Shown here one piece after another: positions 7,259 through 41,395 of a DNA stretch of 52,938 bases. The notes beneath the pieces were generated by a model, which searched no databases, was not told the origin of the DNA, and worked only from the letters and a program-made list of their open reading frames with translations. Location: assembly GCA_028705565.1 (NCBI GenBank), contig JAQWDH010000007.1:1-52938 (forward strand). Direction: 5' to 3'. Each line of letters begins with the position of its first letter. Position 1 is the stretch's first letter. Position numbers and translations under genes: made by a program. The stretch is from Patescibacteria group bacterium. GTDB lineage: Bacteria > Patescibacteriota > Patescibacteriia > Magasanikbacterales > GWA2-37-8.

Positions 7259-7993
7259 ATGAATAATTTAATTTTAATCATTCTCGGAACATTTTTAATA
7301 TCGCTTGGCTCGCTCATCGGCGTCCTCACTTTGTTTGTCAATCAAAAAATTTTAAACAAGGTCCTGCTCGGACTTGTCGGTTTATCATCCGGCGCGCTTT
7401 TGGGCGCGGCATTTATTCATTTAATGCCGGAAGGCGTGGAAAATCTTTCTCCAGATTTATTTTTTTTAATAATGCTCGCTACAATCCTTGGCGATTTATT
7501 GATAGAAAAACTTTTACATTGGCGACATTGTCATTCCGGTCCGCATTGTTCAACACATACTTTTGGATATATGAACTTGGTCGGCGACAGCGTTCATAAT
7601 TTTATTGACGGGTTGATTATAGCATCCTCTTTCGCGGTCAACACCGGACTTGGCGTTTCCACGGTCTTGGCGATAGCCCTGCATGAAATTCCGCAAGAAA
7701 TCGGGGACTTCGGTGTTTTGCTTTACGCCGGATTTGAAAAAAAGAAAGCTCTTGTCTTAAATTTTTTAGTAGCTTTGGCAGTGGTCGCCGGCGGACTCGC
7801 GGGGTGGTTTCTTTCAACTCATATTGAAAACATAACAAAATTTTTAGTTCCCGTCGCTTCCGGCGGATTCATATATATCGCTTTAAGCGACATTTTGCCG
7901 GAAATAAGAAAGGCGTCGGGTTTAAAAAAATTCTTTTCCGGATTTGCTTTTATAGTCATCGGTATCGCAATGATGTTTTTTTTGAGGGATTGA
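7259..7993 (+). CDS. ZIP family metal transporter
   Basis: GDSVHNFIDGLIIASSF ... ALHEIPQEIGDFGVLL motifs. Confidence 0.92.
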   Translation: MNNLILIILGTFLISLGSLIGVLTLFVNQKILNKVLLGLVGLSSGALLGAAFIHLMPEGVENLSPDLFFLIMLATILGDLLIEKLLHWRHCHSGPHCSTHTFGYMNLVGDSVHNFIDGLIIASSFAVNTGLGVSTVLAIALHEIPQEIGDFGVLLYAGFEKKKALVLNFLVALAVVAGGLAGWFLSTHIENITKFLVPVASGGFIYIALSDILPEIRKASGLKKFFSGFAFIVIGIAMMFFLRD

Positions 7994-39466: not shown

Positions 39467-39579
39467 TCATTGCGATCCGCCCTGGGCGGAGAAGCAATCC
39501 CATAGTTTGGTAGTGCCAATAATGTTTCTGAAACATTGGGATTGCTTCGTCGCTCCCTTTGAGAGCCCCTCGCAATGAC
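39467..39579. repeat. MITE-like palindrome with TGTCATTGCGA...TCGCAATGACA ends
   Basis: Nested inverted arms GAAGCAATCCCA / TGGGATTGCTTC. Confidence 0.85.
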
Positions 39580-39628: not shown

Positions 39629-39644
39629 TGTTTCACGTGAAACA
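39629..39644. promoter_or_regulatory. parS: parS centromere site (ParB binding)
   Basis: TGTTTCACGTGAAACA, exact match to the canonical bacterial parS consensus. Confidence 0.9.
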
Positions 39645-39658
39645 TTTTGAAAAAAAAT

Positions 39659-39700
39659 AAGGGCCTTTTTCACTTTTTTTAAGTGAAAAAGACCCTTTTC
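39659..39700. terminator. Bidirectional terminator-like hairpin
   Basis: aagggcctttttcacttttttttaagtgaaaaagacccttttcttatt. Confidence 0.75.
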
Positions 39701-40579
39701 TTATTGTTTTATTATTTTTACCTCCTTTGCCTCGTATTGAGGCAACCCGGCAGGATTATTTGCCGGCACGGAACCTATCAAAGTTCCGTATTTTATAATC
39801 GTCCCTTTTTTTAAAAAAAGAAAATTATGTCCCTCAAGTGACGACCAGTGAATTCTCACCGGTCTTCTTTTAAAATCTTTTCCGTATGCTATTCCACCAG
39901 CAATGGATGAAAATTCAATTTCTGCCTCCATTTCTTCTAATTGTATCTCCTTCTTTTGTGGTTGTGGAGGGGGGGTGGAGGGGATATCTATACTATTTTT
40001 CAGAATATTATTTAAGAGAGTGACCATCTCCGGCCACCTTTTTTTTGTCTCTAACTCAGAACAGCGGATTTCCCCTTTTTTTCCTCCGTAACAGTGTAAT
40101 TCCCATTGTTGGTGGAGACATAAAAAAAATATGTCCTCTTTTTCTATGGGAAATACCCTTATGAGAATGTCCCATATTTTTACCTCCCCAAGTGGGAGGA
40201 TTTCTAAAAAGCGAAGAGAATTTTCTTCGTTTTTTATAAAAAGTGAAAACGGCTCGAAGTCTCTTTGGAAGACCAAACTCTTCTTTTGAAACCTTTTGTA
40301 CTCCAGGAATTGCTCCTGGATTTCTTTTTCTTCGCCCTTTATTCCAACTTTTTGGTCTCTTCCCTCGTCCCTGAGGGTTTTTTGTTGGTATATAGGGATA
40401 AGTGAATTATTACTGATATTGATGTAGAGATTTGTGGAGACAGCGTCTCCTTTTTTAAAATTATTCCCCAGCGAGAAATACTTATTCTCGCTAAGATTCG
40501 TGGGGGAAGAATTAAAAAACACTATACCATTTTTCTCTACTATAATTTTTATCTGGTTATTTTTGTTATTTTCTTCCAT
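39701..40579 (-). CDS. Unknown protein; C-terminus possibly cold-shock-domain-like
   Basis: Start set at MEENNKNN with GGAGAAAAAAATGG RBS; C-term VRIHWSSLEGHNFLFLKKGTIIKYGTLIGSVPANNPAGLPQYEAKEVKII resembles a CSD tail. Confidence 0.6.
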   Translation of the reverse strand: MEENNKNNQIKIIVEKNGIVFFNSSPTNLSENKYFSLGNNFKKGDAVSTNLYINISNNSLIPIYQQKTLRDEGRDQKVGIKGEEKEIQEQFLEYKRFQKKSLVFQRDFEPFSLFIKNEENSLRFLEILPLGEVKIWDILIRVFPIEKEDIFFLCLHQQWELHCYGGKKGEIRCSELETKKRWPEMVTLLNNILKNSIDIPSTPPPQPQKKEIQLEEMEAEIEFSSIAGGIAYGKDFKRRPVRIHWSSLEGHNFLFLKKGTIIKYGTLIGSVPANNPAGLPQYEAKEVKIIKQ

Positions 40580-40607
40580 TTTTTTCTCCTTCGCATTATC
40601 GGCGACT

Positions 40608-40667
40608 CGCCAATTGGCGATGTTTTGGGTCAAACAGTTCCATTCATGAAGAATAGCCTTGTTTGAC
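40608..40667 (-). promoter_or_regulatory. Structured leader copy B (hairpin plus CGCCAATTGGCG palindrome)
   Basis: About 54/60 identical to 40869-40928. Confidence 0.7.
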
Positions 40668-40713
40668 GCGGAGAGCATTCTATATTCTAGTTCCACAGCC
40701 CCCTGCTGGAGGG

Positions 40714-40851
40714 CTATGACGACGACAATGTTAGCCACATAGAGACGGCAATCATTAAAAAAAATGATTCGCTTACCGTCATTATGTGTAAAACACAGGA
40801 CAATAATAGTAAAAGAAATATGATATCTCTTAAGATAATCGTTGTTCCCAT
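40714..40851 (-). CDS. 45-aa small hydrophobic protein
   Basis: MGTTIILRDIIFLLLLLSCVLHIMTVSESFFLMIAVSMWLTLSSS*, RBS AATGGAGAAAAAAATGG; two hydrophobic stretches. Confidence 0.5.
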   Translation of the reverse strand: MGTTIILRDIIFLLLLLSCVLHIMTVSESFFLMIAVSMWLTLSSS

Positions 40852-40868
40852 TTTTTTCTCCATTTTTT

Positions 40869-40928
40869 CGCCAATTGGCGATGTTTTGGGTCAAACAAAT
40901 CCATTCATAAAGGATGGTCTTGTTTGAC
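40869..40928 (-). promoter_or_regulatory. Structured leader copy A
   Basis: GTCAAACAAGACCAT-CCTTTATGA-ATGGATTTGTTTGAC hairpin then CGCCAATTGGCG. Confidence 0.7.
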
Positions 40929-41018
40929 ACAGGGTTTATTGTACATGGACTACTGACCGTAGACTACGGTCTATTGTCTTTTTAGTCCATTATTTTTTTA
41001 ATTGTCAAAGAATAAGTA

Positions 41019-41047
41019 AGTATAGCATACTTTGAAGGTTTTGTCAA
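41019..41047 (-). promoter_or_regulatory. Sigma-70-type promoter for the 40851-39701 operon
   Basis: Minus strand TTGACA-17-TATACT. Confidence 0.8.
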
Positions 41048-41128
41048 GGGTAAAAAATGGCTTAAAAAAGGGGTTTTGCGGGCGGTGGGGCGAGGTGGTG
41101 TGTTGTAAATTATAAATAAATTTATGTC

Positions 41129-41256
41129 AGAAACATTATTGGCACTACCGAACTATGGGATTGCCTGCCTGCATACCTGCGGTATGTAAACATACCTACG
41201 GTATGTAAACCGGTAGGCAAGCTTCGTTTCCACCCAGGGCGGATCGCAATGACAAT
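41129..41256. repeat. MITE-like element containing nested 20-bp palindromes
   Basis: AGAAACATTATTGGCACTACCGAACTATGGGATTGC...GGATCGCAATGACA, inverted relative to 39494-39529. Confidence 0.85.
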
Positions 41257-41379: not shown

Positions 41380-41395
41380 TGTTCCACATGAAACA
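41380..41395. promoter_or_regulatory. parS: Degenerate parS-like site
   Basis: TGTTCCACATGAAACA, two mismatches to TGTTTCACGTGAAACA. Confidence 0.6.

What the first reader, a model, noticed from the sequence alone, without database searches (positions are those of the whole stretch)
40608..40928. Duplicated about 60-nt structured leader driving two consecutive genes
Two copies (40869-40928 and 40608-40667, 261 bp apart, about 54/60 identical) contain GTCAAACA..TGTTTGAC inverted arms, an ATGAATGG loop and the perfect palindrome CGCCAATTGGCG. Each lies before an RBS (GGAGAAAAAAATGG) on the minus strand. This looks like a cis-regulatory RNA or protein operator reused within one operon between the parS sites.
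Basis: seen in the sequence. Interest (0 to 1): 0.65.

Follow-up and report, generated by a model that had tools for sequence, protein, structure and literature searches.

The report
Genome-specific two-hairpin mRNA leader family
In one small bacterial genome, a structured stretch of RNA made of two hairpins sits just before the start of at least eight genes, copied once per gene inside operons; it is probably a built-in control or stabilising element for those messenger RNAs, and it matches no known RNA family.

Summary
The duplication is real: 54/60 identical, 261 bp apart, same strand, each copy just before a ribosome site. It is not confined to the window. The 0.93-Mb genome holds nine copies in five unlinked loci, all in the sense orientation. 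Eight sit 38-50 nt upstream of an ATG. Three operons carry one copy per gene; one extra copy precedes a terminator. The usual architecture is promoter, TTCTTTGAMAATT motif, variable hairpin, hairpin 1 (CGYG-YYAAACA..TGTTTRR-CCCWWAACA), hairpin 2, Shine-Dalgarno, ATG. Three of nine hairpin-1 pairs show compensatory changes, and the G-U pairs fit the sense RNA. Hairpin 2 is rebuilt with unrelated sequences but keeps its fold and place. Nothing matched in Rfam, in 85 relatives of the order, in about 380 sampled genomes of the class, in IMG/VR or in plasmids; the few GTDB pattern hits look like chance. Most likely it is a genome-specific structured mRNA leader acting in cis on translation initiation or mRNA stability. 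How it works, what might bind it, and whether it responds to a signal are not shown. Predicted sequestration of the ribosome site is inconsistent, so a simple thermosensor is not supported. Downstream genes are mostly ORFans or lipoproteins. One copy follows a hammerhead-ribozyme candidate.

The parts
41019..41047 (-). sigma-70-type promoter of the X-Y operon (TTGACA, 17 nt, TATACT, with TG before the -10)
   Evidence: 11 of 12 consensus matches; same promoter layout at nine sites in the genome
41000..41012 (-). TTCTTTGACAATT motif close to the expected transcription start; resembles boxA (identity not tested)
   Evidence: pattern found at nine sites in the genome, 0 in the reversed-pattern control
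40945..40990 (-). HP0: locus-specific hairpin between the motif and HP1 (ATGGACTA...TAGTCCAT)
   Evidence: MFE fold of the leader; a different hairpin lies at the same place in the other loci
40890..40928 (-). HP1 copy a: hairpin 1, arms GTCAAACA (40921-40928) and TGTTTGAC (40890-40897)
   Evidence: nine-copy covariation
40868..40881 (-). HP2 copy a: palindrome TCGCCAATTGGCGA
40858..40861 (-). Shine-Dalgarno GGAG of gene X
   Evidence: read from sequence
40714..40851 (-). gene X: 45 aa, start MGTTIILRDIIFLLLLLSC; lipoprotein-like signal by eye; no family
   Evidence: ORF; no PHROGs hit for this form; no Pfam hit for the 49-aa form
40629..40667 (-). HP1 copy b: arms GTCAAACA (40660-40667) and TGTTTGAC (40629-40636)
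40607..40620 (-). HP2 copy b: palindrome TCGCCAATTGGCGA
40586..40589 (-). Shine-Dalgarno GGAG of gene Y
   Evidence: read from sequence
39701..40579 (-). gene Y: 292-aa ORFan
   Evidence: no Pfam, no PHROGs and no significant NCBIfam hit, absent from 24 genomes of the family, from phages and from IMG/VR
39659..39697 (-). intrinsic terminator of the operon (17-bp stem and T run)

Best explanation
The repeat is a structured mRNA leader belonging to a family of at least nine copies in this genome. Each complete copy is hairpin 1 (conserved arms, variable loop, conserved single-stranded CCCWWAACA flank), then hairpin 2 (conserved fold, free sequence), then Shine-Dalgarno and AUG. It works in cis on the sense RNA. 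Shown: structure, strand, spacing, one copy per gene in three operons, copies in five unlinked loci. Inferred: the hairpins shape the translation-initiation region and shield the mRNA from decay, probably with a trans-acting RNA-binding protein that reads the hairpin-1 arms and CCC flank, so that each gene of the operon carries its own expression element.
For: Nine copies, all sense-oriented to the adjacent gene. Spacing is tight in the eight complete copies: HP1 end to ATG 38-50 nt, HP1 to HP2 7-15 nt, HP2 end to ATG 13-27 nt. HP1 has 96.3% of cells paired against 24-46% for slid partners, three pairs changed on both sides, six double-change cells against 1.7 in shuffles with 0/500 reaching it. 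The U-G pairs keep pairing only on the sense strand (they would be C-A on the other). HP2 is CGCCAATTGGCG, CCGCTTT..AAAGCGG, CGTCGGCTTAAAAGCGGACG or TCCGCC...GGCGGA at the same place, and CCGCTTTN0-12AAAGCGG occurs in the genome only at the three copies that carry it. First copies follow a promoter.
Against: No homologue outside this genome was found, so covariation rests on nine related copies; copies within an operon are near duplicates, so independent events are fewer than cells. No expression or probing data. SD accessibility differs among copies (mean unpaired probability 0.09-0.86), so no uniform switching is predicted. One copy (C36c) precedes a terminator and no gene.
Confidence: 0.6

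Rival explanations
1. The copies are by-products of segmental duplication and gene conversion of leader plus gene, with no present function.
For: Copies within one operon are the most alike: C5 pair 54/60, the C20 pair differs at a few sites, the C36 trio shares arms and flanks. C36c is an orphan copy without a gene.
Against: Diverged copies at five unlinked loci keep pairing through double changes and keep the HP1-HP2-SD-ATG spacing although HP2 sequence is not kept; the downstream genes are not related by inspection.
Confidence: 0.15
2. HP1 is a DNA recombination or transposition site (integron attC-like, Xer-like, or a REP hairpin of a Y1/RAYT transposase), and the operons are arrays of gene cassettes.
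For: Arrays of ORFan genes separated by hairpins; a hairpin after the last C36 gene; GTCAAAC/GTTTGAC comes within one base of the attC core RYYYAAC/GTTRRRY; one Y1 transposase-like gene exists in the genome.
Against: No integron integrase above the curated cut-off; only weak tyrosine-recombinase matches that also occur in all 14 control genomes. The AAC/GTT triplet is broken in C35 (GCTTGAC) and C20 (CAAATG). C31 and C35 are single copies between promoter and gene. All nine copies are sense-oriented with fixed spacing to ATG, which transposition would not give. No copy was found on the contig with the Y1 gene.
Confidence: 0.1
3. HP1 and HP2 are palindromic DNA operators for a transcriptional repressor.
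For: Both are inverted repeats near promoters; the HP1 arms are conserved in sequence at five copies.
Against: Second and third copies lie inside operons far from the promoter; HP2 has unrelated sequences at different loci; HP1 arms change on both sides; U-G pairs break the DNA palindrome but not the RNA stem; HP1 lies some 80-120 nt downstream of the promoter.
Confidence: 0.08
4. The leader is a processive antitermination signal: the TTCTTTGAMAATT motif is a boxA and HP1 recruits a Nus-type or NusG-paralogue factor.
For: boxA-like motif near the start of the transcript at the promoter-proximal copies and also after the ribozyme at C36a; hairpins in leaders can recruit such factors, as the dfn hairpin does for LoaP (PMC12691694).
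Against: The motif also occurs in front of genes without HP1 (C12, C17, C34); HP1 is repeated at every gene and spaced from the ATG rather than from the promoter or a terminator. boxA identity was not tested against the rRNA operon.
Confidence: 0.07

Closest known systems
Stabilising or translation-modulating 5' UTR hairpins of bacterial mRNAs (for example the ompA leader; from general knowledge)
   Same: hairpins upstream of the Shine-Dalgarno in the 5' UTR, fold more conserved than sequence
   Different: here a recognisable family is repeated before unrelated genes and inside operons, once per gene, with conserved HP1 flanks; effect on stability not measured
LoaP-dependent leader hairpins (dfn, mln; PMC12691694)
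   Same: small hairpin in the leader
   Different: LoaP hairpin is a UNCG-type hairpin in long leaders with terminators; HP1 has no UNCG loop, lies close to the start codon and is repeated per gene
boxA-bearing leaders (rRNA and phage antitermination)
   Same: TTCTTTGA-like motif at the start of the transcript
   Different: motif is not specific to the HP1 genes; Nus-factor dependence untested
Integron attC sites
   Same: imperfect hairpins between ORFan genes in arrays
   Different: no integron integrase above cut-off, conserved triplet not kept, no second box pair, copies between promoter and single genes

Membership tests
cis-acting structured leader RNA (general class) | lies in the 5' UTR or intercistronic leader, sense orientation, near the start codon | tested here: met
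   eight of nine copies 38-50 nt upstream of ATG; C36c is the exception
cis-acting structured leader RNA (general class) | secondary structure conserved by compensatory change | tested here: met
   limited by nine copies from one genome
cis-acting structured leader RNA (general class) | structure changes expression | not testable with these tools
   needs reporters
known Rfam families | score at or above a family's gathering cut-off | tested here: not met
   no HP1/HP2 match
RNA thermometer | Shine-Dalgarno sequestered in the fold in every copy | tested here: not met
   mean unpaired probability of SD 0.09 to 0.86 (prediction at 37 C only)
integron attC | integron integrase in the genome | tested here: not met
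   TIGR02249: no hit over cut-off
integron attC | conserved AAC/GTT core triplets | tested here: not met
   broken in C35 and C20 copies
REP element of a Y1/RAYT transposase | dispersed in both orientations, linked to the transposase gene | tested here: not met
   all nine copies sense; a Y1-like gene exists on C24 but no HP1 on that contig
boxA/Nus antitermination leader | NusB/S10-dependent read-through | not testable with these tools
   motif present; dependence needs experiments
LoaP leader hairpin | UNCG-type loop | tested here: not met
   HP1 loops vary in length and sequence; feature from PMC12691694

The most novel reading that the evidence does not exclude
The organism uses a modular leader-plus-gene expression cassette: a two-hairpin leader is copied with each newly gained gene, kept homogeneous within each operon, and can be exposed by a new 5' end made either by transcription start or, at C36, by a self-cleaving hammerhead ribozyme, giving gene-by-gene post-transcriptional control of accessory surface genes.
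Probability: 0.12. Interest if true: 0.7.

Novelty: new member of a known kind. Interest (0 to 1): 0.45.

Why it matters
Small, reduced genomes are expected to be poor in elaborate regulation, yet here a structured leader family is repeated in front of mostly ORFan or lipoprotein-like genes and once per gene inside operons. It would be an undescribed structured RNA family with a clear consensus, testable by RNA-seq from the organism or by reporters in a laboratory host. The per-gene reuse raises a clean question: are leader and gene acquired together, or is the leader copied onto new genes?

Tried and rejected
Coding repeat: a 409-aa frame runs through both copies and would encode SNKxILxEWxCLTQ twice. 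Rejected because loop lengths shift the frame in C36a and the same frame has stops in C31, C35 and C20 (read). Integron attC and REP/RAYT: see membership test. Known RNA families: Rfam at gathering and at E-value thresholds gave nothing for the element. Wider distribution: exact-arm pattern in 56 relatives, R2 in 85 further genomes of the order and in about 380 of the class, relaxed pattern in the order with a reversed-pattern control (own genome 6 hits, all known copies; relatives at background), R3 in 23 relatives (best foreign hits inspected and not convincing), one GTDB pattern scan (7 hits, at about the number I expect by chance and inspected as unrelated contexts), IMG/VR (0; 0; the looser pattern returned 80 loci that were not examined further), plasmids by blastn. 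SD sequestration by the CCC flank: predicted in some copies only. A script copy of the whole genome was not available, so copies too diverged for R3 or the patterns may remain.

Full report
Observation. A 29-mer containing the palindrome and one arm occurs twice in the window and never in shuffles with up to 3 mismatches. On the minus strand each copy reads hairpin 1 (HP1), CCCAAAACA, palindrome (HP2), Shine-Dalgarno, ATG. As sense RNA both fold better than all 200 shuffles, z -4.3 and -4.7; the other strand also folds (z -5.1 and -2.7), so folding alone does not choose the strand.

The operon. A promoter at 41047-41019 (TTGACA, 17, TATACT with TG, 11 of 12) precedes TTCTTTGACAATT, a locus-specific hairpin HP0, HP1a, HP2a and gene X (45 aa from the second ATG, lipoprotein-like start by eye), then HP1b, HP2b, gene Y (292 aa) and a 17-bp terminator at 39697-39659. 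Y is an ORFan: no Pfam or PHROGs hit, no significant NCBIfam hit, none in 24 genomes of the family, in phages or in IMG/VR. X has no family hit.

More copies. BLAST found two further copies on contig C36, a pattern search raised this to three there and none in 56 relatives. Model R1 then found diverged copies on C31 and C35. A search for promoter plus TTCTTTGAMAATT found nine sites with none in the reversed control, and reading them revealed a C20 copy. Model R3 recovered all eight and added a second C20 copy. R3 was built from the first eight, so its scores for those are by construction; the ninth is an independent find at E 7.6e-9. The total is nine copies at five loci: C5 (2), C36 (3), C20 (2), C31, C35.

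Anatomy. HP1 is CGYG-YYAAACA, a loop of varied length, TGTTTRR, then CCCWWAACA or close to it. HP2 has unrelated sequences but always folds: TCGCCAATTGGCGA, TCCGCTTT..AAAGCGGA, CGTCGGCTTAAAAGCGGACG, TCCGCC...GGCGGA. CCGCTTTN0-12AAAGCGG occurs in the whole genome only at the C35, C36a and C36b copies. In the eight complete copies the distances are HP1 to HP2 7-15 nt, HP2 to ATG 13-27 nt, HP1 to ATG 38-50 nt. The ninth, C36c, leads into a terminator. Three operons carry a copy per gene, and copies within an operon are more alike than between operons.

Covariation. On nine copies 96.3% of HP1 cells pair, against 24-46% with slid partners; three of nine pairs change on both sides; six double-change cells against a shuffle mean of 1.7, none of 500 reaching it; covariation score 0.309 against 0.187, none of 500. 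Earlier alignments of seven and eight copies gave the same direction with weaker numbers. Relatedness within operons means that the six cells represent fewer events, probably three or four. The U-G pairs (C35 column 8/43, C20 column 12/39) are pairs only on the sense strand, which favours RNA.

Distribution. Outside this genome I found no convincing copy: 85 other genomes of the order and about 380 of the class by R2, the order by relaxed pattern against a reversed control, 23 relatives by R3, one GTDB scan with 7 hits that I read as chance, two specific IMG/VR scans with 0, and plasmids by blastn. Over 40 genomes the search uses stricter filters that lose weak matches, so diverged relatives could be missed. 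Rfam has no match.

Genes served. C31: a 379-aa protein with MopE-type repeats (Pfam PF11617). C35: a 138-aa lipoprotein-like protein with TDTDTD repeats, followed by a guanylate-kinase-like gene. C20: a 294-aa lipoprotein-like protein with SDTDSD repeats, then a protein whose end looks like an outer-membrane barrel by eye. C36: two small ORFs behind a P-loop gene and a Csx3-like gene (Pfam 2.1e-6, below the NCBIfam cut-off). Lipoprotein calls are by eye.

Mechanism. Position, strand, spacing and conserved pairing point to a structured leader acting in cis on the sense RNA. The conserved HP1 arms and CCC flank with a free loop suggest a protein contact at the base of the stem; HP2 at the upstream edge of the ribosome footprint suggests control of ribosome access or protection from decay. 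These last steps are inference. Simple sequestration of the Shine-Dalgarno is not consistent: mean unpaired probability runs from 0.09 (Y) to 0.86 (C36a). An antitermination role cannot be excluded, but the motif that resembles boxA also precedes genes without HP1.

Alternatives. Integron attC fails on integrase and core triplets; a Y1 transposase-like gene exists on C24 without HP1 nearby; a DNA operator does not explain internal copies or free HP2 sequence. Neutral duplication explains similarity within operons but not maintained pairing and spacing across loci.

Verdict. The finding is real and broader than described: a genome-specific leader family, not in Rfam, with function inferred only. 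Literature searches covered open-access papers in PubMed Central and did not turn up this element. The genome's name was not given; 0.93 Mb and gene content suggest a reduced, Patescibacteria-like lineage, which I did not test.

Noticed in passing
L005:6739-6781 minus (G000:C36), same as L004:1962-2004 minus: Type III hammerhead ribozyme candidate with the core CUGAUGAG...CGAAA (Rfam RF00008, 30.3 bits, below the gathering score of 48.5), between a Csx3-like gene and the first HP1 copy of that operon.
   Followed up: partly
L005:6957-7259 and 7339-7923 minus (G000:C36): Csx3-like protein (Pfam E 2.1e-6, NCBIfam below cut-off) next to a P-loop protein in the same operon.
   Followed up: partly
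window 39629-39644 and 41380-41395: Two parS-like palindromes (0 and 2 mismatches to TGTTTCACGTGAAACA) inside repeat blocks that bracket the X-Y operon; 9 of 100 shuffles reach two matches.
   Followed up: no
window 39500-39531 and 41127-41158: 32-nt inverted repeat, 97% complementary, flanking the X-Y operon.
   Followed up: no
G000: C5, C12, C17, C20, C31 (two), C34, C35, C36: Promoter plus TTCTTTGAMAATT motif at nine sites, 0 in the reversed control; also in front of genes without HP1.
   Followed up: partly
L207 (G000:C20), second gene of the operon: Protein ending ...WVVLPFVNFVLF looks like an outer-membrane barrel by eye, unexpected if the genome is Patescibacteria-like.
   Followed up: no
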